Of a DNA stretch of 38,276 nucleotides, positions 26,743-38,276 are shown in pieces. The translations under genes and the position numbers were made by a program. A model generated the notes under the pieces. That model was not told the origin of the DNA and ran no database searches. It worked only from the letters and a program-made list of their open reading frames with translations. How positions within the stretch are numbered: the stretch's first letter is position 1; each line of letters starts with the position of its first letter. Origin of the DNA: Burkholderiales bacterium (GTDB lineage: Bacteria; Pseudomonadota; Gammaproteobacteria; Burkholderiales; Burkholderiaceae_C). The stretch lies in contig RXJV01000098.1 of the NCBI GenBank assembly GCA_003963075.1, forward strand, positions 1 to 38,276, read 5' to 3'.

Positions 26743-27411
26743 TTACTTGGCGTCAGGCGCCGTGAAGCGCCATGCCAGCACCGGCCCGCCATCGTCGATA
26801 CGCGCATGCGTCGCCGGCTGAAAGCCCGCCCTGCGCAGAGCGGCCAGGGCCGGCAGGGCAGTGTCGGCCGGCTGGGCGAGCCTGGCCTCGGCGGCCTCGC
26901 CGAGGAAGGACAGGTAGATGGTCTGCCGCGGCAGCAGGGCCGCGAGATGGCTGCGCCAGGCGGGGCCGTGCTGCGCCTGCGCCAGCGCCGGGTCGCCGGC
27001 GTAGAAGCGCGAGCCCAAAGCCTGCCAGAGCGGCGAGCGGCCGTCCGCATCACGCCAGCCCGGCAGTTCGGCCACCAGCCAGTCGCCAAAGTCCTGCGGG
27101 CGCCGCTGCATCAGGTCGCGCGCCGCGCCGATGAGGCGCAGCAGGGCGGCGGTCTGTCCGGCCTCGGCGAGGCCGGGGGCGAACTGCAGCTCGGCCAGTT
27201 CGGACTGGCCGGTGTGGTCATTGCCGAGCAGCAGCGTGGTCTGCACGCGGAACAGGCCCAGCTCCTGCGCGGCATGCACGACCCGGCCGATGTGGAAGTG
27301 GTAGCGCGGCAGCGTCAGGCCCAGGCGCGGCACGAGCAGCAGCGAGGCGGAGCCATCCGCGAGGGCGAGCCGCTTTCCGCCGGGTTCGATGGCGATCTGG
27401 ATCTCGTTCAT
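26743..27411 (-). CDS. Shortened AruG-like arginine N-succinyltransferase subunit
   Basis: A 222-residue protein at the end of the arginine operon, overlapping astA by four bases (ATGA). It keeps the central blocks of the second AST-pathway succinyltransferase subunit: LGNDHTGQSELAEL, SPLWQALGSRFY and LLPRQTIYLSFLGEAAEARL, but the first 60-70 residues (acyltransferase start) and the C-terminal 60-70 of the usual 340 are absent. In Pseudomonas, AruF and AruG form a heteromer. This form could still pair with AstA as a structural or regulatory partner. The start at 27411 is set by the overlap; longer frames are shadows. Confidence 0.7.
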   Translation of the reverse strand: MNEIQIAIEPGGKRLALADGSASLLLVPRLGLTLPRYHFHIGRVVHAAQELGLFRVQTTLLLGNDHTGQSELAELQFAPGLAEAGQTAALLRLIGAARDLMQRRPQDFGDWLVAELPGWRDADGRSPLWQALGSRFYAGDPALAQAQHGPAWRSHLAALLPRQTIYLSFLGEAAEARLAQPADTALPALAALRRAGFQPATHARIDDGGPVLAWRFTAPDAK

Positions 27412-28439
27412 GCCTGCTCCTGCGCTTGCAGCGGCGTGGCCAGCAGCCGTTCGCCGACACGCGCGTCCAGCGCTGGGGCGTCGGCCGGCGTGATGCGCTC
27501 GCCGGCCTCGGCCAGCACTGCGGCGAAGTTCGCGCGCGTCGGCCGCACCAGCAGCTGCCAGTGGCGCGGGCCGCCGGCCTCGGCGTGCACCTGCACCTCG
27601 CGCGCCAGTCGCACGCTGCGCAGCGAGGCCAGCGGCGCCTGAACGGTCGGGCCGCCGTCGAAGATGTCGATGTAGGTGTCGGCGTCGAAGCCCTCGTCCT
27701 GCAGGATGGAGAACGGCAGCTCGCCGACCGGGTGCAGCTGGCCGATGGCCCATTGGGCCGCCTCGGGCAGCAGCGCGACATAGACCGGCGACGGCGGCAT
27801 CAGCTCGGCGATGCAGGCGCGGCTGCGCCCGCCGATGACGGCCTCGGCCTCCGGGTAGTCCATGCCGAAGAAGCGCCGGCCCACGGCATCCCAGAACGGG
27901 CTCTGGCCCGCGTCGTCGGTCACGCCGGGGCTCTCGGCCGCGATGCGGGCCGAGAAGCGTTCGGCATGGGCGCGGATGAAGAGCAGCCGCGCGCGGCTCA
28001 GCAACTGGGCCGCGGGCCCTTGTTCATAGTCGGGGTCCAGGTAGAAGGAGGTCAGCAGCGTGGCGCCGGTCAGGTCGTGGCACAGGTGCAGGGTGTGCAT
28101 GCGCTGCGATACGCCCAGTGCCGCGCTGGCGTGCACGACGAACTCGTTGCGGTAGCTGTAGAAGCGGTCGAAGAAGCCCGCGCTCGCGGCAATGCCCGAG
28201 CAGCCGACCAGGCGGCCGCGGCCCGCGTCGGCGGCCTGGTCCTCCAGCACGAATAGATAGGTCTCTTCACCGCTCGCATCGTCCGCGCTGGCGAAGGACT
28301 GCAGCGAGGCCTCGATGCGCCGGCGCAGCTTGGTCTCGTCGTTGGGCAGGGAGCTGATGCCGTCGGCACTGGCCGCGGCCATGCGCTGCAGGTCGGCGAG
28401 GTCGGCCGCCGCCACCGGGCGCAGCAGCAGGTGGTTCAT
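27408..28439 (-). CDS. astA: Arginine N-succinyltransferase (AruF/AstA)
   Basis: The 343-residue full-length enzyme transfers succinyl from succinyl-CoA to arginine, the first step of the AST pathway of arginine degradation. Blocks include LRPVAAADLADLQRMA, GISSLPNDETKLRRRI, FYSYRNEFVVHAS, HDLTGATLLTSFY, SPFWDAVGRRFFGMDYPEAE and YIDIFDGGPTVQA, all matching AruF. The next genes of the pathway (astB, astC, astD, astE) are not in the window and must be elsewhere. The ATG overlaps the regulator stop by four bases. Confidence 0.92.
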   Translation of the reverse strand: MNHLLLRPVAAADLADLQRMAAASADGISSLPNDETKLRRRIEASLQSFASADDASGEETYLFVLEDQAADAGRGRLVGCSGIAASAGFFDRFYSYRNEFVVHASAALGVSQRMHTLHLCHDLTGATLLTSFYLDPDYEQGPAAQLLSRARLLFIRAHAERFSARIAAESPGVTDDAGQSPFWDAVGRRFFGMDYPEAEAVIGGRSRACIAELMPPSPVYVALLPEAAQWAIGQLHPVGELPFSILQDEGFDADTYIDIFDGGPTVQAPLASLRSVRLAREVQVHAEAGGPRHWQLLVRPTRANFAAVLAEAGERITPADAPALDARVGERLLATPLQAQEQA

Positions 28440-29428
28440 GGAAGGTCTCCCGTGGGGCCGCCGGCGCGCCAGGCAAGCGCGCGGCGGCTGCGCTCGTCGC
28501 GCGGCGTGTGGCCGAAGTGGGCCTTGTAGGCGTTGGAGAAATGCGGCCCCGACGAGAAGCCGCAGGACAGGCCGATCTGCAGGATGGACTGGCTGCTCTG
28601 CTGCAGCAGGCGTTGTGCGCGCGCCAGCCTCAGCTCCAGGTAGTGGCGCGAGGGCAGGGTGTCGAGATGCTGCTTGAACAGGCGCTCGAGCTGGCGCCGC
28701 GACACGCCGACCAGGCGCGCCACTTCCTCGGTGGGCAGCGGCTCGGCGAGGTTGGCCTCCATCAGCGTGAGCGCCTCGGCCAGCTTGGCGCTGCCGGCGC
28801 CACGCTGCTCGCTGTAGCCGGCGCGCTGGCGCTCGTCGCGCGGACGCAGGCCGCGCAGGCCCAGGGCATGCACCAGCTCCTGGCCGACGCGCTCGCCGTG
28901 CAGGCTGGCCAGCCAGGCGCAGCACAGGTCCAGGCTGGCGGTACTGGCCGCACAGCTGAGCCGGCTGCCATCGGGGGCGATTTCCCACAGGCCGGCCGCC
29001 CAGGCCACGGCCGGATGGCTGTCGGCCAGGCTGTCGAGCAGGGTCCAGTCGGCACAGGCGCGCTGGCCGTCGAGCAGCCCGGCCTCGGCGAGGGCTGCGG
29101 CACCCGCTTCGACGCCGCCAAGGATGGTGCCGGCGCCGGCCCAGGCCCGGAGCTGGTCGCCGAACAGCGGGTCGGCCGGAGCCGCATCGGCCGCAAGGAC
29201 AAGCACCGCATGCCATTCGGCCGGCAGCGACCACGGCTCGGTCAGCACTCGCAGCCCGGCCGAGGACATCACCGTGCCGCCGGCGTCGGACAGGGGCTCG
29301 CCGCGGTAGACGGCATCGGCCTGCAGCGCGTTCACCGCCGTCAGGCTGTCGAGGATGCCGGCGAGCGACAGCGCCGAGAAGCCGGGCTGCAGCACCAGGC
29401 CGACACGGCGCAGCGGAGCCGGGCTCAT
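28436..29428 (-). CDS. ArgR-type AraC/GlxA-family transcriptional regulator
   Basis: The 330-residue regulator has an N-terminal DJ-1/PfpI-like domain (about 8-185) and a C-terminal AraC DNA-binding domain with two helix-turn-helices at about 233-254 (TEEVARLVGVSRRQLERL) and 281-303 (ILQIGLSCGFSSGPHFSNA). The nucleophile cysteine position of DJ-1 proteins is occupied by GGVEAGA, so it senses rather than catalyses. This is the family of Pseudomonas ArgR, which controls arginine uptake and catabolism. Its placement between the transporter and astA, plus ArgR-type sites upstream of the operon, argue that it is the arginine sensor of the locus. Confidence 0.87.
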   Translation of the reverse strand: MSPAPLRRVGLVLQPGFSALSLAGILDSLTAVNALQADAVYRGEPLSDAGGTVMSSAGLRVLTEPWSLPAEWHAVLVLAADAAPADPLFGDQLRAWAGAGTILGGVEAGAAALAEAGLLDGQRACADWTLLDSLADSHPAVAWAAGLWEIAPDGSRLSCAASTASLDLCCAWLASLHGERVGQELVHALGLRGLRPRDERQRAGYSEQRGAGSAKLAEALTLMEANLAEPLPTEEVARLVGVSRRQLERLFKQHLDTLPSRHYLELRLARAQRLLQQSSQSILQIGLSCGFSSGPHFSNAYKAHFGHTPRDERSRRALAWRAGGPTGDLP

Positions 29429-29444
29429 GCGTGCGTGGCGGCGC

Positions 29445-30833
29445 TCAGGGCCATTGCGTCAGCGCCGGCACGGCCAGCAGCGCCAGGGCCATGACGAGGT
29501 AGGCCGCCTGCAGCGGCAGCATCCAGCGCACCCAGGTGCCATAGGGCAGGCCGGACAGCGCCAGCACGCCGACGGTGATGCCCGAGGTTGGGATGATGGC
29601 GGTGGTCAGCTCGCCGAACTGGAAGGCCAGCACGGCGGTCTGGCGGGTGATGCCGACCAGGTCGGCCAGCGGCGCCATGATGGGCATGGTCAGGGCCGCC
29701 TGGCCGGTGCCGGAGTGGATGAAGAAGTTGATGACCGACTGGATCAGGAACATCTTCTGCGCCGCGAACACGGGGCTGTCCGAACCCACCAACGGCGCCA
29801 GCGCATGCAGCATGGTGTCGATGATCTGGCCGTCGCGCATCAGGATGACGGTGGCCTTGGCCAGCGCAATAACCAGGGCCGTGCCGACGAGATCACGCGC
29901 GCCCTGCAGGAAGGCCGCGACGATGTCGTCGGCCGACAGCCGCGCGATCAGGCCCACCGCGACGGCCATCACGAGGAAGAGGGCGGCGATCTCTTCGATG
30001 TACCAGCCCCACTTCACGACGCCGACGATCATGCCCGCCAGCGTCGCGACGAAGGCCCACAGCACCAGGCGCTGGCGGCCCGTCATGCCGGCGAACTGTT
30101 CGAAGCTCGCAAGGTCGAGCGTACGGCGGCGCTCCTGGTCCATCGCATAGCTGGGGCTGAGCGTCGGGTCGCGCCGGATGCGCGCGGCCCACCACATCAG
30201 GAAGGCGATGGTCAGGCCGGTCGCGATGGCCCAGCAGACGGCACGGTAGCCAATACCGGAGAACAGCGGCACGCCGGCGATGCCCTGGGCCACGCCGACA
30301 TTGAAGGGGTTCAGGAAGGCGGTCGCAAAACCCACCTGCGAGCCAACGAACGGAATCGCCACGCCGGTCAGCGAATCCAGCCGCAGCGCCAGTGCTAGCG
30401 GGATGAAGATCAGCACGAAGGGAATCGCTTCCTCGGCCATGCCGAAGCTGGCGCCGCCGAGCGAGAACAGCGTGACGAAGCCCGGGATGACGGCGGCTCG
30501 CACCAGGGCCGAGCGGCTGTGCGCGCGGGCCACGGCCTTGATCATCGCGTCGATGGCCTCGGTCTTTTGCAGCACCGCGAAGGCGCCACCGACGATCAGC
30601 ACGAAACCGATGATCAGCCCGGCCTCGACGAAGCCCTTGATCGGCGCGGTCAGAAAGGCCGCCAGCCCTTGCGGGCAGGACTCGGCGGCGTGGAAGCTGC
30701 CGGCGATGATGAGCTTTTTGCCGTTGACGAGCTCGGTGTCGAACTGGCCACCGGGCACGACCCAGGTGGCCAGCGCGATCAGCGCGAGCAGGCCGAACAG
30801 CAGGACGAAGGTGTTGGGCAGCTTGAGGGTCAT
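29445..30833 (-). CDS. YfcC/DcuC-family transporter, probably for arginine or beta-Asp-Arg
   Basis: The 462-residue inner-membrane carrier has 11-13 hydrophobic segments. Blocks TWVVPGGQFDTE, GGASFGMAEEAIPFVLIF, FLNPFNVGVAQG, FIHSGTGQAALTMPIMAPLADLVG and FGELTTAIIPTSG match the YfcC branch of the DcuC superfamily. Substrates of the family are poorly known, often basic or dicarboxylic amino acids. Here its ATG overlaps the stop of the CphZ-like gene (ATGA), so a role in moving cyanophycin products is inferred from context. Confidence 0.85.
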   Translation of the reverse strand: MTLKLPNTFVLLFGLLALIALATWVVPGGQFDTELVNGKKLIIAGSFHAAESCPQGLAAFLTAPIKGFVEAGLIIGFVLIVGGAFAVLQKTEAIDAMIKAVARAHSRSALVRAAVIPGFVTLFSLGGASFGMAEEAIPFVLIFIPLALALRLDSLTGVAIPFVGSQVGFATAFLNPFNVGVAQGIAGVPLFSGIGYRAVCWAIATGLTIAFLMWWAARIRRDPTLSPSYAMDQERRRTLDLASFEQFAGMTGRQRLVLWAFVATLAGMIVGVVKWGWYIEEIAALFLVMAVAVGLIARLSADDIVAAFLQGARDLVGTALVIALAKATVILMRDGQIIDTMLHALAPLVGSDSPVFAAQKMFLIQSVINFFIHSGTGQAALTMPIMAPLADLVGITRQTAVLAFQFGELTTAIIPTSGITVGVLALSGLPYGTWVRWMLPLQAAYLVMALALLAVPALTQWP

Positions 30834-31948
30834 AGGGACAGCAGTTTGCCGCTGCGGAAGGCCGTCGGACCCGCGATTTTCATCAGGCGCATGCCCCGCG
30901 TGGCGTAGCGGCGGGCGCTGCGTGCAAAACAGCGGCCGCTGACCTGGGCGTGCAGCGGCGTGCGGGCGTCGGTGAGCGGGTCGATCAGTTCCGCGACGAG
31001 TTCACCGGCGTCGACCCAGTCACCCGGGGCCTTGCTGAAAACGACGATGCCCTGGCTGGTGGCTGTGACCGGCTCGACGCCTTCGAGCGGCGTTGCGGCA
31101 CAGGGCCGCGGCAGCGCCGGCGGCGTGCCGGCGACATGCCCGGCGTGCTGCAGGAAGGCGACCAGCGCGTCCGCATCATGCTCGGCGAGGTCGTGCGAGA
31201 CCTCGGTCTCGCCGCGCAGTTCCACGGTGGCTGCCAGGCAGCCCAGCGGGTCGATCGGGAAGCGGCCCTGGAAATGCGCGGCCAGCTCCCACCAGATGCG
31301 CGAGACCGACTCGTCAAAGGGTTCGTCGCCCGACACGTCGGCGAACAGCAGGGCCTGGGCGCCGAGGTAGCCGGCCAGCGGCGCGAAGGCCGCCACCTGG
31401 GGCGTGCCGGTGTAGAGATGAAGCACCGCCTGGTTGTCGCAGTGCAGGTCCAGCACGAGCTCGGCGTCCATCGCCAGCCGCTGCAGCAGGCGCTTGAGGG
31501 CCTCGGTTTCGCTGGCCGGCTGCCAGGCCTCCAGCAGGCCGGCGCAGGCCGTGCGGATGACGCGCGCATTGGCCTCGGCGTCGTCGCCGAGCTGCGGCTC
31601 GATGATCGGGACCAGGGCGGCCGTCAGGTGCTTGAAATGCCGGTTGAAATTGGTGCCGGTGGCCAGGTCGAAGCGACCGCAGGCCGCGCCTTGCAGGTCC
31701 TGGGCCAGGCCGATGGGGTTGGCCATCGGCACCAGCACGATCTCGCCGTCGATGGCGCCAGCAGCGTCCAGCAGTTGCAGCCTCTCGCTCAGCGCCTGGG
31801 CGACGAGCATGGGCGGGACCTCGTCGGCATGCAGGGAGGCCTGCAGATAGGCCTTGCGGCCCGATGCGCCGCGGCCGAAGTGAAGGCTGCGCAGCCGGCG
31901 TGTCGTGCCGGCGCTGGCGCCGGGCAGTTCGTGGATCTGGGTTCGCAT
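30830..31948 (-). CDS. cphZ: CphZ-like zinc dipeptidase (succinylglutamate desuccinylase/aspartoacylase family)
   Basis: The 372-residue M14-type enzyme has zinc ligands His40 and Glu43 (LHADEVPPM) and His169 (LVLDLHCDN), with a catalytic glutamate probably at 243 or 247 (ATVELRGETEVS). A C-terminal beta domain follows (TSQGIVVFSKAPGDWVDAGE). The nearest known functions are AstE, aspartoacylase and CphZ, which splits beta-Asp-Arg in the cytoplasm. Neighbouring cyanophycinase makes CphZ the best call. No signal peptide, so the dipeptide must be imported. The ATG at 31948 lies 28 bases after cyanophycinase; longer frames are shadows. Confidence 0.8.
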   Translation of the reverse strand: MRTQIHELPGASAGTTRRLRSLHFGRGASGRKAYLQASLHADEVPPMLVAQALSERLQLLDAAGAIDGEIVLVPMANPIGLAQDLQGAACGRFDLATGTNFNRHFKHLTAALVPIIEPQLGDDAEANARVIRTACAGLLEAWQPASETEALKRLLQRLAMDAELVLDLHCDNQAVLHLYTGTPQVAAFAPLAGYLGAQALLFADVSGDEPFDESVSRIWWELAAHFQGRFPIDPLGCLAATVELRGETEVSHDLAEHDADALVAFLQHAGHVAGTPPALPRPCAATPLEGVEPVTATSQGIVVFSKAPGDWVDAGELVAELIDPLTDARTPLHAQVSGRCFARSARRYATRGMRLMKIAGPTAFRSGKLLSL

Positions 31949-31976
31949 GGGGATGGAGCGGTGCAGCCTCGAGGGG

Positions 31977-33212
31977 TCAGTGCGCCGGGATCGGCGTGAA
32001 CAGGGGGGTGGCCATGCGCACCGGCACCACGTCCAGCCGGGCCTTGAGCACGGTGTAGTCGTCGCTGCCCAGCGCGCTGCTGAACCAACCCACCAGGCCG
32101 GGCCCGCGATACAGCCGGAACTCGAAGCCGACATCGGGCGCCAGGTCGTCGGGCCGGGGCCGGGCGCGGAAGGCCAGGCCGCGCACCTCGGGCTCGGTGC
32201 CGTCGAGCAACTGGACCATGGCGGTCACCAGGGTGTTGTCGCCCAGCATGTCGAGGAAGTAGTCACTCGTGCGCAGAAAGGGCTTGAAGTCGGGCGCGGC
32301 CGGGTCGATGCGGGGCTCGCGCAGCTTGTGCGGCGCCGGGGTGCTGACGCCGGTCTTCAGCTGGTGCCGGTCGCCGCGGTCCAGATAGCTCAGCTGGGCG
32401 CCGCGCAGGTTGAAATAGGGCAGGCGCTCGTCGCTGCTCGCGTCGCCGAGCTCCACCAGCAGCGCGCCACGCGCGCCGATGACCTCGATCTCGTCGCCCT
32501 TGACGACGATGGCCGAGTTCTCCTCCACGCCGATGCCCACCCGGTAGCCGAGGGCGCGCATGGCCGGCAGCATGCGGCCGATGCGGCCCCGGCGCAGGAA
32601 ATGCTGGTCGACGAACAGCTCGGGGCCGACGAAGCCCAGGCCCCGGTCGAAGTCGCGCCGTTCGCGCCATTGGCCCTTCAGGATCTGCAGGTTGTCCGGC
32701 GGGTCGCGAAACATCATGCGGCTCATGATGGCCGCGCCGGCGCTGGTGCCCGCGATGACGCCGCCCCGGTCGAACACCTGGCGGATCGCCTTCAGCATCT
32801 CGGAGGGTTCGCCGCCGGGCTGCAGGGTGTCGACGATCAATGCCTGGGCGCCGCCGGAGAAGAACACGCCGCGCGCCGCAGCGACCTTGGCGATCAGCAC
32901 CGGGTCGGCCAGTTGGGTCGCGAGGTCGACATCGCGCAGCCGCGGTGCGACCGGGACCAGCTCCGCAACCGCGCCACGCCGGGCCAGCGCCGCCACGATC
33001 TGCGCGCCGCTGCGCTCCGGGTTGCCGGCCGCGGTGGCGAACACGGCGATGTAGGCGCCGTTGCCGCCGGCCTCGGTGACGACACGCTGCCAGACGGCGT
33101 CGTTGTCGCTCTTCAGGGCCCCGCCGATGACGATGGCGGTGCCCGCATGGGCCGATGCAGCGGCGCACAGCAGCAGGCCAAGGAGTCGGAACAGGAAGCG
33201 CATGAGGGCCAT
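31977..33212 (-). CDS. cphE: Exported cyanophycinase (S51, CphE type)
   Basis: A 411-residue protein (408 if the ATG at 33203 is used) with a signal peptide (MRFLFRLLGLLLCAAASAHA). The S51 nucleophile is Ser154, counted from MRF, in VIAGTSAGAAIMS. The glutamine-binding FFSGGAQ, the FVDQHFLRRGRIGR block and VGIGVEENSAIVV complete the active-site region. It hydrolyses cyanophycin to beta-Asp-Arg. Export places it outside the cytoplasm, as in CphE of scavengers, unlike cytoplasmic CphB. About 110 extra C-terminal residues may help secretion or binding. It heads the operon. Confidence 0.9.
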   Translation of the reverse strand: MALMRFLFRLLGLLLCAAASAHAGTAIVIGGALKSDNDAVWQRVVTEAGGNGAYIAVFATAAGNPERSGAQIVAALARRGAVAELVPVAPRLRDVDLATQLADPVLIAKVAAARGVFFSGGAQALIVDTLQPGGEPSEMLKAIRQVFDRGGVIAGTSAGAAIMSRMMFRDPPDNLQILKGQWRERRDFDRGLGFVGPELFVDQHFLRRGRIGRMLPAMRALGYRVGIGVEENSAIVVKGDEIEVIGARGALLVELGDASSDERLPYFNLRGAQLSYLDRGDRHQLKTGVSTPAPHKLREPRIDPAAPDFKPFLRTSDYFLDMLGDNTLVTAMVQLLDGTEPEVRGLAFRARPRPDDLAPDVGFEFRLYRGPGLVGWFSSALGSDDYTVLKARLDVVPVRMATPLFTPIPAH

Positions 33213-33267
33213 GTTCGCAGCGCTCGCGCCGCCCGCCCAGCGGGTTCGGCCCTGCAACGGTGCGTCA

Positions 33268-33309
33268 TGCACCGCCGACGCAATTGCATGTCGCTTGGTT
33301 GCAAGCCCT
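33268..33309 (+). promoter_or_regulatory. ArgR-type operator facing the receptor gene
   Basis: The half-site at 33289-33309 reads TGTCGC-N8-AA-N5, an exact fit to the Pseudomonas ArgR consensus, with GCAA preceding the last bases. The 21 bases before it (33268-33288) form a weaker partner with TG....C and GCAA in the same phase. Direct 21-bp tandem half-sites are how ArgR binds. The site lies about 150 bases before the receptor ATG. Confidence 0.6.
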
Positions 33310-33326
33310 GTGGCGGCGCTGCGCCG

Positions 33327-33368
33327 CCTGCTTGCGAAGAAGCGACGCGCATTTGCGCCCAAGCGACC
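33327..33368 (-). promoter_or_regulatory. ArgR-type operator facing the cyanophycinase operon
   Basis: On the minus strand two half-sites stand in exact tandem with 21-bp spacing: GGTCGC-N8-AA (33368 to 33348) and CGTCGC-N8-AA (33347 to 33327), both with GCTT after GTC and GCAA at the end. Each matches the ArgR pattern in all but the first base. It is about 115 bases before the cyanophycinase start, a normal activator distance. Confidence 0.68.
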
Positions 33369-33456
33369 GCTGCGCCGAAACCCCATAGGCAATGCGCAAG
33401 CGGCCTCCCTAACCTGAATGGCATCCGCAGACCCATCTGTTCAACCCGAGGCCCTC

Positions 33457-36216
33457 ATGACTTCAGCTCGCCTGCCTTCCCTGCACGCACTGGCCCACGC
33501 CGCGCTGCTCACCGTCACCGCCCTGGCCGCGCACGCCCAGGAACAGAAGCTCGAACGCGTGGAGATCACCGGCTCCAGCATCAAGCGCATCGATGGCGAG
33601 ACGGCCCTGCCGGTGCAGACCATCAAGCGCGAGGACATCGCCAAGACCGGCGTGACCACCGCTGCCGAGCTGATGAAAAACATCAGCGGCAATGCCGCGG
33701 GCCTGACCGACGGTGCCAGCATCACCGACAACCAGGGTGGCCAGCGCGGCTTCAACGGCGCCAACCTGCGCGGCATCGGCGTGTCGTCCACGCTGGTGCT
33801 GCTCAACGGCCGGCGCATGGCCAATTTCGCCTCGCCTGGCGACAGCTCGGGCGTCGACCTGAACAACATCCCGGCCGGTGCCATCGAGCGCGTGGAAATC
33901 CTGAAGGACGGTGCCTCCGCGATCTACGGCACCGATGCCATCGGCGGCGTCATCAACTTCATCACCCGAAAGGATTACCGCGGCGCGGACGTCAACCTCT
34001 ACACGGCGCGCACCCAGGAAGGCGGCGCCGACAAGACCAGCGTCTCGATCGGCGGTGGCGTGGGCGATGTCAACAAGGACGGCTACAACGTCTTCGCGGT
34101 CATCGATGCGCAAAAGCTCGGTTCGCTGAGCGCACAGGATCGTGACTTCATCCGTTCGCGCCCCCTGGCCGACAACGATCTGTCGCTCTATCTGTCCTCG
34201 CGCACCTACCCGGCCAACATCCGCCTGCAGGGCAGCTCCAGCTCGCGGCGCAACCAGCTCGCCGCGCTCAAGGCCGGCGGCTACAAGATCAACGGCCAGG
34301 ACGTGACCCAGCGCACCTTCAACCCGTCGGCGCCTGGCTGCAACCCGCCCAACACCATCTTCGCGCCCTTCAACCTGCCCCAGGCCTGCAGCTACGACTA
34401 CATGCAGGACACGCAGATCTACCCCGAGGCCAAGAAGCTCTCCTTCCTGACCCGCGGCGTCGTCAAGCTGGCGGCCGACACCGAGCTGTTCGGCGAACTG
34501 CTGGAGGCCCGCGCCACGACCAACTACGTCAACAGCGGCGTGCCGGTGCAGGTCTTCGATGTGCCCTTCGGCATCCTCAACAAGAACCTCAGCACCAAGA
34601 TCCCGCTGCCCGACAGCCAGCTCACCACACTGCGCCTGCGTGCATCGGAGGCCGGCAACCGCACCAATGAAGTCACCAGCCGGGCCGAGCGCATCGTTCT
34701 GGGCGTGAGCACGACGCGCGGTGACTGGGACTACAGCGCCGCTGTCAACCGCGCCGTCAACACCACCAACGACCGCTACACCGGCGGCTACTTCCGCTAC
34801 GACAAGATGGTGGCCGGCGTGCTCAGCGGCGCCATCAATCCCTTCGGTCCCTCGGGCAGCGCGGGCCAGGCCGTCTGGGCCGATGCCCGTGTGGTGGACG
34901 ATGCCCGCAAGGCCAGGGGGGTGACCACGACCTTCGACGTCAAGGCCAGCGGCACATTGATGGAGCTGCCCGCCGGGCCGTTGGGCGCCGCCTTCGGCCT
35001 GGAGCGCCGCCGCGAATCGACCTCCTTCACGCCGTCCGACCTGATCAACAGCAACCTGATCGCCGGCGACCGTGGCACCTCGACGGATGCGAGCGGTGTG
35101 TTCACCGGCGACCCGACGCGCGATCGCGTCGTGGCCACCAGCAACAGCCGCAACATCAGCAGCGCCTATGGTGAACTGAACGTGCCGGTGACCAAGGAGC
35201 TCGAAGCCCAGCTGGCGCTGCGCTATGACAACTACAGCGGCGTCGGCAGCACGACCAATCCCAAGCTCGGCATCCGCTGGCAGCCGAACAAGCAGTTCCT
35301 GCTGCGCGGCTCGGCCGGCACCGGATTTCGCGCGCCGACCATCAGCGAGCTCTACCGGCCGATCAGCTACGGATCGGCATCGGCGTCGCCGACCGATCCC
35401 GTCTGCGTTGCGGCCGGAAACTCGCCGACGGACTGCTCGGGCCAGCCGCCCGTCACGCGCTACAGCAACCCCAACCTGAAGCCCGAGAAGTCCAAGCAGG
35501 CCTCCTTCGGCGTGGTGCTGGAGCCGGTCAAGCAGCTCAGCATGAGCCTGGACTACTGGGCCATCCGCAAGACCGATGTGATCAGCGATATCGGCATCCA
35601 GACCATCATCAACAACCAGGCCAAATACGCGCGGCTGATCACCGACGATGCCGACGGGTTCATCACCAACATCGACCTGCGCAAGGAGAACCAGGGCGGC
35701 CTGAAGACCTCCGGCATCGACGTCGAGGCCAACTGGCGCGGCGACAGCAGCGAGTACGGCCGCTTCAGCGCCAGCTTCAGCGGCACCTATGTCTTTGAGT
35801 ACAAGCGGCAGTTCGGCGCCGGTGACGACTACGTCAGCAACGTCGGCCGCTTCCTGAACGACCAGGTCATCCAGCGCTGGCGCCACCGCGCCAGCATCGA
35901 CTGGGACCTGGGTGCCTTCGGCGTGACGCTGGGCAACACCTACTACTCCAGCTATGCCGACCAGAGCACGCTGTGGAACCCGCGCACCAACAAGAAGCTG
36001 GACGACCGCATGGTGGCCGCCTACAGCCTGTGGGACCTGAGCGCGTCCTGGAAGGTCAACAAGGCATTCCGCGTTCGCGGCGGCATCCAGAACCTGCTCA
36101 ACACCCAGCCGCCGTTCTCGAACCAGGACCAGTACTTCCTGTCGACCTACGACCCGACCTACACCGACCCGCGAGGCCGCACCTTCTACCTCAGCGCGAG
36201 CTACCAGTTCCGTTGA
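33457..36216 (+). CDS. TonB-dependent receptor, likely for cyanophycin or its fragments
   Basis: The 919-residue outer-membrane protein has a signal peptide (cut after about 27, AAHA), a plug domain (about 35-160; VEITGSSIKRIDGETALPVQ, LRGIGVSSTLVLLNGRR, IERVEILKDGASAIYGTDAI) and a beta barrel ending in FYLSASYQFR. The GSSIKR type of plug is common in receptors for peptides and carbohydrates rather than siderophores. It is transcribed away from the cyanophycinase operon, sharing the operator region. Role in capture or uptake of the polymer or its products is inferred from context; no tonB-exbBD genes are here. The ATG at 33457 follows a CGAGG ribosome site. Confidence 0.88.
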   Translation: MTSARLPSLHALAHAALLTVTALAAHAQEQKLERVEITGSSIKRIDGETALPVQTIKREDIAKTGVTTAAELMKNISGNAAGLTDGASITDNQGGQRGFNGANLRGIGVSSTLVLLNGRRMANFASPGDSSGVDLNNIPAGAIERVEILKDGASAIYGTDAIGGVINFITRKDYRGADVNLYTARTQEGGADKTSVSIGGGVGDVNKDGYNVFAVIDAQKLGSLSAQDRDFIRSRPLADNDLSLYLSSRTYPANIRLQGSSSSRRNQLAALKAGGYKINGQDVTQRTFNPSAPGCNPPNTIFAPFNLPQACSYDYMQDTQIYPEAKKLSFLTRGVVKLAADTELFGELLEARATTNYVNSGVPVQVFDVPFGILNKNLSTKIPLPDSQLTTLRLRASEAGNRTNEVTSRAERIVLGVSTTRGDWDYSAAVNRAVNTTNDRYTGGYFRYDKMVAGVLSGAINPFGPSGSAGQAVWADARVVDDARKARGVTTTFDVKASGTLMELPAGPLGAAFGLERRRESTSFTPSDLINSNLIAGDRGTSTDASGVFTGDPTRDRVVATSNSRNISSAYGELNVPVTKELEAQLALRYDNYSGVGSTTNPKLGIRWQPNKQFLLRGSAGTGFRAPTISELYRPISYGSASASPTDPVCVAAGNSPTDCSGQPPVTRYSNPNLKPEKSKQASFGVVLEPVKQLSMSLDYWAIRKTDVISDIGIQTIINNQAKYARLITDDADGFITNIDLRKENQGGLKTSGIDVEANWRGDSSEYGRFSASFSGTYVFEYKRQFGAGDDYVSNVGRFLNDQVIQRWRHRASIDWDLGAFGVTLGNTYYSSYADQSTLWNPRTNKKLDDRMVAAYSLWDLSASWKVNKAFRVRGGIQNLLNTQPPFSNQDQYFLSTYDPTYTDPRGRTFYLSASYQFR

Positions 36217-37019: not shown

Positions 37020-37481
37020 TTACCTTTTCGACCCAGAAGGAAGGCGGCTCTCATAGTCTACGAGCAAGGTGGCTAGTTTTTCGGCCTCGCTTGCGCCAGG
37101 TTCAATGCCGCCGCCCTCCAGTATCCCCTTCACCAAATAATACTCATTGAGGGACTTAATATTCCCTCTCTTGAGCACCTGAAGATAATTTTTTGAATAT
37201 TTCGCCCTGACCTGAGACAGCGATGGCGCACCATTAAACAACAACCTCTTATCAGCTTCCGAAACCAGTTCTGGACTCCAATGACTGGACACTTCGACAC
37301 AGTCGTTGACTGCCATTCCAAGACCACGTCTTGCCTTCGAGGGGGATTTTCTTTCCAACTCTGCCAGTACGACGAGAGGATGAATTTCCGGAGGGTGATG
37401 CGGTTTGGCTTCAAACCATTCGTAAAAGAAGCCCAGGAACTTCTTCAAACCCTCAAAATCTTCTTCTGACATTGTTGACAT
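37020..37481 (-). CDS. Probable immunity protein for the Rhs toxin
   Basis: A 153-residue soluble acidic protein (MSTMSEEDFEGLKKFLGFFY..) starts five bases after the toxin stop. A GTG at 37496 overlapping the toxin end is an alternative start. No family is recognised, but the position directly behind an Rhs toxin tip, small size and lower GC content than the surrounding genome fit a cognate immunity gene. Blocks include LAELERKSPSKARRGLGM and SKNYLQVLKRGNIKSLNEYY. Confidence 0.6.
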   Translation of the reverse strand: MSTMSEEDFEGLKKFLGFFYEWFEAKPHHPPEIHPLVVLAELERKSPSKARRGLGMAVNDCVEVSSHWSPELVSEADKRLLFNGAPSLSQVRAKYSKNYLQVLKRGNIKSLNEYYLVKGILEGGGIEPGASEAEKLATLLVDYESRLPSGSKR

Positions 37482-37486
37482 TTCGT

Positions 37487-38276
37487 TTACTGACACGTGC
37501 AGTTTCCTGAGGGAATTGCTTCTCCAAATTCTACCAATGCATCGTTCAAGTAAAACGGACGCCGCGGATTCCAAGTGCTGATGCCGTTAATCATATTTCT
37601 TGAACTCCCTCCAGAACTTTGAGCGCCTCCGTTGACTTCAATCAACTTCTGCTCTCTGCCTCGAATAGCGGAATAGTTATCCGAGGAGCGATCGAGCACT
37701 GGCGGCAGGAATCCTTCAGCGTTCAACAGTGGTTGACCCATTGCTCTATTTTTAATGTTTGTGTTCGGGTCATCGTAGCCTGAGGTCCGGCCGCTATAGC
37801 ACTTGCCTGTCTTGGGGTTGTAGCGCGTATAAGTCTGATAAGTCTTCTTGCGCTCCTCTTCGGCCGTTCGTGTCGTTGAGGTCGAACTTGAGTTCGATTC
37901 GCTATTTGGACCGACACCAGGAGGGAAGTCTGGGTCAAAGCGTCCGCTCTTCCTGCCAGGGACAACGATGACTACCTGTCGACCATCCGCATCCGTGTAG
38001 CTGACAGGATTGCCCAGTACGTAAGCATACGGATCAATGCCCGCCACCAAGCCCAGCGGATCTGGCTGCGTGTACCGCCCCACCCGCGGGTCATAGTAAC
38101 GGTTGCCGTTGTAGTACAGCCCGCTCTCGGCGTCGAAGTACTGCCCCGGCAGGCGCAGGTTGATCGTGGTCTTGGTGCCGGTACTGCTCGGGTCTTCGTT
38201 GGGCGGTGTGCTGCCGAAGGCGTCGCTCTCCCAGGTCCAGACGATCCTGGCGCTCTGGTCGCTGGCTTTCCTGGGG
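37487..38276 (-). CDS. Rhs-family protein, C-terminal part with GIY-YIG/URI-like toxin tip (5' end outside window)
   Basis: 262 residues are visible. The first part is the RHS core end: [38 protein letters not shown] and [19 protein letters not shown], the usual cleavage-site region before a variable toxin. The tip then has [18 protein letters not shown], like the first half of GIY-YIG, and [13 protein letters not shown], with Arg and Glu where that fold has its catalytic pair. Nuclease activity is inferred. Rhs proteins are delivered by type VI or similar machines to competitors. The tip switches to lower GC than the core, showing exchange of toxin modules. Confidence 0.85.

What the first reader, a model, noticed from the sequence alone, without database searches (positions are those of the whole stretch)
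26743..36216. Arginine-controlled cyanophycin scavenging locus
A six-gene overlapping operon (exported cyanophycinase, CphZ-like zinc dipeptidase, YfcC transporter, ArgR-type regulator, AstA, AruG-like protein) sits opposite a TonB-dependent receptor. The enzymes cover a full route from external polymer to N-succinylarginine: receptor or secretion outside, dipeptide import, dipeptide cleavage and entry to the AST pathway. No cyanophycin synthetase is present, so the host would consume polymer from others. Cyanophycinase, CphZ and AST enzymes are known individually; the receptor and transporter roles are new inferences. Cyanophycin would be an unusual substrate for a TonB-type system.
Basis: partly seen in the sequence, partly recalled or inferred. 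Interest (0 to 1): 0.85.

Follow-up and report, generated by a model that had tools for sequence, protein, structure and literature searches.

The report
Arginine-controlled cyanophycin uptake and degradation operon

Summary
In detail: exported cyanophycinase, CphZ-type dipeptidase, YfcC-family carrier, AraC/ArgR-type regulator, an AstA protein and a shortened AstA-like partner, divergent from a TonB-dependent receptor (TBDR).

New support: (1) the receptor is kept beside the cyanophycinase in 33 of 34 CphZ/ArgR-type loci and belongs to a cyanophycinase-linked TBDR clade whose members seem to have been exchanged at this fixed slot; (2) the divergent promoter holds three ARG boxes, a tandem pair 21 bp apart plus an inverted one; at least one box occurs in 30 of 30 ArgR-linked promoters, and the window's pair is the only perfect tandem site in its assembly; (3) YfcC and Aot-type ABC genes replace each other in this operon.

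Corrections: the genome encodes cyanophycin synthetase, so "no synthetase" is true of the window only. The AST pathway is missing: AstB is in 0 of 48 genomes of the family, yet 13 of those 48 keep the AstA pair, always in this operon. The pair is orphan, under purifying selection, and its product's fate is unknown.

TBDR-cyanophycinase linkage and cyanophycin utilization loci are already in print. This is a new variant of a known kind, with an open enzymatic question.

The parts
31977..33212 (-). cphE: cyanophycinase (peptidase S51), 411 aa, signal peptide-like N-terminus, S51 domain plus a C-terminal beta-rich part of unknown role
   Evidence: NCBIfam TIGR02069 131.8 bits over cut-off 126.6; aligned to CphB 3en0/7uqw; S157, Q123, D202-Q203-H204, R208, R210, R213, E231 invariant in 30 aligned homologues; model pLDDT 90.3, best folds are cyanophycinases and a 'pseudo-CphB'; N-terminus read
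30830..31948 (-). cphZ: zinc-type cyanophycin dipeptide hydrolase (AstE/AspA fold), 372 aa
   Evidence: Pfam AstE_AspA_cat 53.4 bits; PDB 8ein/8eip E 5e-66 over residues 8-362, with the LHADE, DLHxDNQ and TxEL motifs kept; no NCBIfam match
29445..30833 (-). yfcC/dcuC-family inner-membrane carrier, 462 aa
   Evidence: Pfam DcuC 334.9 bits; NCBIfam YfcC 363.8 bits, under its cut-off of 500
28436..29428 (-). AraC-family regulator, ArgR-like, 330 aa
   Evidence: HTH_18; 42% identical to the regulators near AstA gene pairs in L209 and L210; ARG boxes in the promoter; best NCBIfam match is GbdR, 219 bits against a cut-off of 480
27408..28439 (-). aruF/astA-like arginine/ornithine N-succinyltransferase alpha subunit, 343 aa, orphan (AST pathway not found)
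   Evidence: Pfam AstA 346.4 bits, TIGR03243 subfamily over cut-off, TIGR03245 under cut-off; 1yle E 2e-91
26743..27411 (-). aruG-like shortened AstA subunit, 222 aa
   Evidence: Pfam AstA 122 bits over profile positions 77-261 only; 1yle E 3e-18; dN/dS 0.14-0.29 in five close pairs of relatives
33457..36216 (+). TonB-dependent outer-membrane receptor of a cyanophycinase-linked subfamily, 919 aa
   Evidence: Pfam Plug and TonB_dep_Rec beta-barrel over cut-off; closest own-genome paralogue is the TBDR beside the C58 cyanophycinases, 798 bits against 308 for the next; tree
33289..33304 (+). ARG box 1 (TGTCGCTTGGTTGCAA), inverted to the tandem pair
   Evidence: consensus from PMC10963909
33332..33347 (-). 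ARG box 2, one of a tandem pair 21 bp apart
33353..33368 (-). ARG box 3, the other member of the tandem pair

Best explanation
A cyanophycin utilization locus switched by arginine. CphE is exported and cuts cyanophycin outside the cytoplasm to beta-Asp-Arg (chemistry strongly inferred from residues and fold; localisation inferred from the signal peptide-like start). The divergent TBDR is a dedicated outer-membrane porter for cyanophycin pieces (inferred from conserved pairing and clade membership; ligand not shown). YfcC, or an Aot-type arginine ABC transporter in sister operons, carries beta-Asp-Arg or arginine through the inner membrane (inferred). CphZ splits beta-Asp-Arg to Asp and Arg (strongly inferred). 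The AraC-type ArgR senses arginine and acts at three ARG boxes between cphE and the receptor gene, controlling both directions (sites shown by sequence; ligand and sign inferred). The AruF/AruG-like pair then acylates arginine or a related product, but not as step one of the normal AST pathway, which was not found in the family; its role is open. The host also has cyanophycin synthetase, so polymer from lysed kin, or its own, is as likely a source as that of cyanobacteria.
For: Families and residues. Conserved arrangement: of 69 CphE loci, 33 of 34 with a downstream CphZ or ArgR gene have the divergent TBDR; 28 have ArgR, AruF and AruG together, 26 of these with CphZ and 23 with YfcC. ARG boxes (first base left free): at least one in 30 of 30 ArgR-linked promoters, three in 22 of 30, all 22 same-strand spacings 21 bp, shuffled expectation 0.016 per region; the only perfect tandem GTCGCN6GCAA site in the 4.65-Mb assembly is here; published ARG box TGTCGCN6GNAA in tandem with 5 bp between (PMC10963909). 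Receptor. Carrier swap: among 21 operon loci, YfcC (over 850 bits) in 11, AotJ- or AotP-like (over 300 bits) in 8, both in none; L068 reads TBDR | cphE, binding protein, permease, permease, cphZ, ATPase. AST not found. Selection on AruF and AruG.
Against: No ligand is known for the receptor; its model (pLDDT 73) best matches siderophore and B12 receptors at about 15% identity. 17 of 18 stand-alone CphE genes with room upstream have no TBDR beside them (the 18th, L055, looks like a tandem locus cut by its contig end), 2 of 14 tandem CphE loci lack it, and the CphZ-linked L041 lacks it, so cyanophycinase does not need this receptor. In a phylum sample only 1 of 11 fetched loci with a cyanophycinase over the cut-off had a TBDR within 1.5 kb, and a CphE-like gene of G368 (L206) had none found in 18 kb. 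The best fold match of CphE is named pseudo-CphB, and the C-terminal part is not covered. beta-Asp-Arg is small enough for porins (general knowledge). YfcC is under its NCBIfam cut-off; CphZ matches no NCBIfam model. Loci come from close relatives and some are the same genomes seen twice.
Confidence: 0.68

Rival explanations
1. One reading: external polymer is degraded and arginine enters the ordinary AST pathway through AstA, in a host that cannot make cyanophycin.
For: AstA and AruG-like genes are in the operon; the related cluster in G079 (L209) has cphZ, ATPase, argR, then both AstA genes and, further on, astB.
Against: AstB in 0 of 48 family genomes, including genomes rated 100% complete; in G000 AstE has no match and AstD none over cut-off; CphA present in G000 and over cut-off in 24 of 29 family genomes examined.
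Confidence: 0.07
2. The receptor has nothing to do with cyanophycin (for example a siderophore receptor) and is kept beside cphE only because both share a promoter region or by chance.
For: Nearest solved structures are siderophore and B12 receptors; most stand-alone CphE genes do without it.
Against: 33 of 34 CphZ/ArgR-type and 12 of 14 tandem-CphE loci keep it; the receptors of the two locus types are nearest paralogues in the genome, 798 against 308 bits; at the fixed slot the receptor seems to have been replaced by another member of the same clade; the tandem-CphE loci keep it without ARG boxes.
Confidence: 0.12
3. The locus mainly recycles the cell's own or its dead kin's cyanophycin rather than scavenging that of cyanobacteria; the second, cytoplasmic-looking cyanophycinase of the sister locus (C58) handles internal polymer.
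For: CphA tandem in the genome; C58 and 15 further tandem loci pair an exported-looking with a cytoplasmic-looking cyanophycinase.
Against: CphE of this operon has a signal peptide-like start (its orthologues too) and sits with an outer-membrane receptor, which points outward; sources of polymer cannot be told from sequence.
Confidence: 0.13

Closest known systems
P. aeruginosa aotJQMOP-argR region and AotO = CphZ (Sharon et al. 2023 PNAS; paper not held, content recalled)
   Same: CphZ-type hydrolase with an arginine transporter and an AraC-type ArgR with ARG boxes; L068 shows the order binding protein, permease, permease, cphZ, ATPase.
   Different: Here an exported cyanophycinase and a TBDR are added, YfcC stands in for the ABC transporter, and of the AST genes only the AstA pair was found.
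Cyanophycin utilization locus (Ben Hania et al. 2017, seen only as cited in passages of PMC10206079)
   Same: Cyanophycinase, a beta-Asp-Arg hydrolase and a transporter clustered for scavenging.
   Different: That locus is described with IadA; here CphZ, ARG boxes, a TBDR and AstA genes; this host also has CphA.
TBDR beside a cyanophycinase in Citromicrobium JLT1363 (PMC3400609, passages seen)
   Same: Same idea: the TBDR takes up cyanophycin-derived material.
   Different: One genome; no operon, regulation or clade analysis in the passages seen.
AST pathway (aruCFGDBE / astCADBE)
   Same: AruF aligns with the solved alpha subunit over most of its length and keeps most invariant residues.
   Different: AstB, AstE and AstD not found in the assembly; second subunit shortened to 222 aa.

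Membership tests
Cyanophycinase, CphE type (exported S51) | Passes the cyanophycinase model; catalytic Ser/His/Glu and polymer-binding Gln, Asp, Gln, Arg positions (roles recalled); signal peptide | tested here: met
   131.8 bits over 126.6; positions aligned to 3en0/7uqw and invariant in 30 aligned homologues; SP-like N-terminus read from sequence. Activity not testable.
CphZ (cyanophycin dipeptide hydrolase) | AstE/AspA fold with zinc motifs, catalytic Glu and full-length similarity to the solved CphZ (8ein/8eip identified as CphZ from recall; the database calls them succinylglutamate desuccinylase) | tested here: met
   E 5e-66 over residues 8-362 of 372, motifs kept; activity not testable here
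ArgR (AraC/XylS type) regulon | ARG box TGTCGCN6GNAA in tandem, 5 bp between, at the controlled promoter | tested here: met
   Tandem pair fits except the first T of each box (C and G here); the third, inverted box fits fully (consensus from PMC10963909)
AST pathway | AstB, AstD and AstE in the genome with AstA | tested here: not met
   AstC not searched
Arginine/ornithine N-succinyltransferase heteromer (AruF/AruG) | Two full-length AstA-family subunits passing the NCBIfam models | tested here: not met
   AruF over the subfamily cut-off (345.6 against 284.35) but under the alpha equivalog cut-off (374.9 against 458.8); AruG-like only 124.2 against 284.35 and 222 aa
TonB-dependent receptor | Plug and beta-barrel domains over their Pfam cut-offs | tested here: met
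   model (pLDDT 73) matches PirA, PfeA and BtuB folds
TonB-dependent cyanophycin transporter | Binds and imports cyanophycin or its pieces | not testable with these tools
   only genomic association
Cyanophycin scavenger without synthetase | Cyanophycinase present, CphA absent | tested here: not met
   CphA over cut-off at C72

The most novel reading that the evidence does not exclude
The operon holds a previously undescribed end to cyanophycin use: an AruF plus shortened-AruG acyltransferase, split off from the AST pathway and, in this family, found only in this operon, modifies arginine (or beta-Asp-Arg) for a new catabolic, storage or signalling fate, fed by the first family of TonB-dependent receptors dedicated to an isopeptide polymer.
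Probability: 0.3. Interest if true: 0.72.

Novelty: new variant of a known kind. Interest (0 to 1): 0.5.

Why it matters
It gives a compact, regulated and genetically tractable system in ordinary environmental bacteria for testing whether a TonB-dependent receptor can import pieces of an isopeptide polymer, and it isolates an arginine acyltransferase pair that has lost its known pathway. It also shows that genomes with cyanophycin synthetase carry exported degraders, which bears on how this nitrogen store is shared in communities.

Tried and rejected
Rejected: the AST route; chance neighbourhood; host without synthetase. The TBDR-S51 pairing in the phylum looked at first like broad support: of the 29 loci that one search gave, 13 of 18 under the cut-off had a TBDR within 1.5 kb against 1 of 11 over it. 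But in the 17 of those 18 in which my profile found the protein, 0 have the GTSAGA or DQHF..R.R..R signature by a simple pattern (10 and 8 of the 11 over the cut-off have them), so I do not count them as cyanophycinases. At up to 3 mismatches the tandem-box search of the own genome gave 27 matches against 111 for the backward control, so its weaker hits are noise and no wider regulon can be read from it. The own-genome two-domain S51 protein on C11 gave only one match, 28% and local (L042), in the 21 related loci searched. The dS values are near-uniform between genes and probably limited by codon bias, so dN/dS is only indicative. The first signal-peptide script anchored on the wrong motif for some rows and was replaced. 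The AotJ and AotP profiles were built from 5 and 4 sequences, some of them from the very loci that they then matched. The receptor fold search gave no substrate hint. Paper searches joining cyanophycin with AotO and with arginine succinyltransferase gave 0 and 2 listings; the 2 were not opened.
Full report
1. What is there. On the minus strand lie cphE (31977-33212), cphZ (30830-31948), a DcuC/YfcC-family carrier gene (29445-30833), an AraC-family regulator gene (28436-29428), an astA/aruF-like gene (27408-28439) and a short aruG-like gene (26743-27411); on the plus strand a TonB-dependent receptor (TBDR) gene (33457-36216). Three of five junctions overlap by 4 bp; two have gaps of 28 and 16 bp. 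The window is one whole contig, C63, of a 173-contig assembly of 4.65 Mb rated 95.65% complete.

2. Cyanophycin chemistry. CphE passes the cyanophycinase model (131.8 bits against 126.6), aligns with solved cyanophycinases, and keeps Ser157, Gln123, Asp202-Gln203-His204, Arg208, Arg210, Arg213 and Glu231 invariant in all 30 homologues that I aligned (their roles are recalled from the CphB literature). Its model (pLDDT 90.3) matches first a protein named pseudo-CphB (7uqv) and then Synechocystis cyanophycinase, one entry bound to a cyanophycin dimer; the C-terminal part of about 130 residues is not covered. CphZ aligns over residues 8-362 of 372 with 8ein/8eip (E 5e-66), which I know as CphZ structures from recall; zinc and catalytic motifs are kept.

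3. Arginine control. The 244-bp divergent promoter holds three sites of the form NGTCGCTTNNNNGCAA: a tandem pair 21 bp apart and an inverted one. The published ARG box of Pseudomonas ArgR is TGTCGCN6GNAA in tandem with 5 bp between, that is 21 bp start to start (PMC10963909, passages; a P. syringae paper gives TGTCGCN8AAN5, PMC4997734, passage). The inverted box fits fully; the two tandem boxes have C and G for the first T. With that base left free, over 52 promoters, all 30 linked to an ArgR gene have at least one box (22 have three, 5 two, 3 one) and all 22 same-strand spacings are 21 bp; of the 22 others 17 have none, and two of the five with boxes (L015, L044) are operons cut off by a contig end before any ArgR gene; shuffles give 0.016 sites per region. 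In the window's assembly the only perfect tandem GTCGCN6GCAA site is this one; hits with up to 3 mismatches (27) are fewer than for the backward control (111). The regulator is 42% identical to those near AstA pairs in two other genomes.

4. The receptor. Each of the 69 CphE loci was classed once, by the CphE that brought it in. Of these, 34 have a downstream CphZ or ArgR gene and 33 of the 34 have the divergent TBDR; of 15 tandem-CphE loci 12 have it, 2 do not and 1 runs off its contig; of 20 other, stand-alone CphE genes 1 has it (L055, probably a tandem locus cut by its contig end), 17 do not and 2 run off the contig. In the window's genome the nearest paralogue of this TBDR is the one beside the two other cyanophycinases on C58 (798 bits, 49%), then 308 bits. 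In a quick tree the 52 cyanophycinase-linked TBDRs separate from 3 other own TBDRs, whose branches are very long. The receptor tree disagrees with the CphE tree: holding together the receptors of a 12-member clade of the CphE tree is rejected (p-AU 6.75e-06). I read this as replacement of the receptor by another member of the same clade while the slot stays filled; long branches (window, L009) are a caveat. No ligand can be read from sequence or model.

5. The carrier. Among 21 operon loci, YfcC (over 850 bits) is in 11 and AotJ- or AotP-like genes (over 300 bits) in 8; no locus has both; L202 has neither and L057 a weaker YfcC relative on the other strand. L068 reads TBDR | cphE, lysine/arginine/ornithine binding protein (over cut-off), two permeases, cphZ, ATPase, the order that I recall for the Pseudomonas aot operon. 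This swap supports beta-Asp-Arg or arginine transport by YfcC, as inference.

6. The fate of arginine. AstB has no match in the window's genome and in 48 of 48 genomes of its family; it is in 5 of the 32 other genomes of that call. AstE gives no match and AstD none over cut-off in the window's genome (AstC not searched). AstA-family pairs occur in 13 of the 48 family genomes, and AstA-family genes in the same 5 others (in G051 a single one). The window's pair and the 13 fetched pairs of the other 12 genomes (G026 has two) lie in the cphZ/argR operon; in G030 no cphE was detected in the stretch, and G013 is cut by its contig end. AruF keeps most AST-invariant positions (27 of 37, in a group of 30 rows that also held four long second subunits), and the second subunit ranges from 334 matched residues in Niveibacterium to 198 here and 184 at the least. 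Five close pairs give dN/dS 0.06-0.18 for AruF and 0.14-0.29 for AruG. The pair therefore seems kept by selection without its pathway. G079 (L209) has cphZ, ATPase, argR and two AstA genes in this order with astB further along, so the operon looks like a cut-down relative of such a cluster.

7. The host can make the polymer. CphA (over cut-off) and a tandem second CphA lie on C72; all 10 AstA-pair genomes among the 29 family genomes examined have CphA over cut-off, 24 of the 29 overall; the other 3 AstA-pair genomes were not examined. The genome has two further cyanophycinases, in tandem on C58 (the second scores 127.3 there and 126.1, just under the cut-off). In 16 of 16 tandem loci the first has a signal peptide-like start and the second does not, by a crude hydrophobicity scan (best windows 1.57-2.76 against at most 1.53).

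8. What is known. A TBDR beside a cyanophycinase, with cyanophycin as proposed substrate, is in PMC3400609 (passages). Scavenging loci with cyanophycinase, IadA and transporter are cited in PMC10206079 (first of five parts, and passages), which also reports the CphZ family. My searches (1, 4, 6, 0, 9, 2 and 6 papers listed) showed by their listings no paper on this operon; of these papers I opened only PMC3400609, PMC2536512, PMC12661447 and PMC10206079. The key PNAS paper on CphZ is not held, so it may describe more of this than I know.

9. Verdict. A real, conserved, arginine-controlled cyanophycin utilization operon with a dedicated receptor subfamily; the AST ending and the pure-scavenger reading are not supported; the orphan AstA pair is the open question.

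Noticed in passing
L087 (G000:C58), L022, L024, L026-L034, L038, L045, L047, L056: A sister locus pairs an exported-looking cyanophycinase, with a Pro/Ala-rich stretch of some 50-70 residues after its signal peptide-like start, with a second cyanophycinase lacking such a start; 13 of these 16 have a TBDR beside them, and the 13 promoters examined have no ARG box.
   Followed up: partly
L193-L196, L199, L200, L205: In 7 of the 12 other family genomes with the AstA pair another S51-like open frame (81-91 bits) lies just after the aruG-like gene; in the window a GDT1-type transporter gene lies there instead.
   Followed up: partly
L088:8557-10509 (G000:C11): A 650-aa protein with two S51-like stretches, the second without an obvious catalytic serine motif.
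   Followed up: partly
L145 / L207 (G467): A cyanophycinase over cut-off in a different family of the class has a divergent TBDR, a possible independent case.
   Followed up: partly
L154-L161, L163, L165-L168: S51 proteins under the cut-off and lacking the simple cyanophycinase signature have a TBDR within 1.5 kb in 13 of 18 fetched loci; their substrate is unknown.
   Followed up: partly
L015, L033: Contigs labelled Methylotenera MAG carry loci nearly identical to Roseateles puraquae (L012, L034) in the trees; probably mis-binned.
   Followed up: no
L068:6957-9605: The TBDR gene of this aot-type locus has an in-frame stop.
   Followed up: no
window 37487-38275 (-): RHS-repeat core fragment at the contig end, followed by a 184-aa open frame (37020-37574) with no NCBIfam match.
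   Followed up: no
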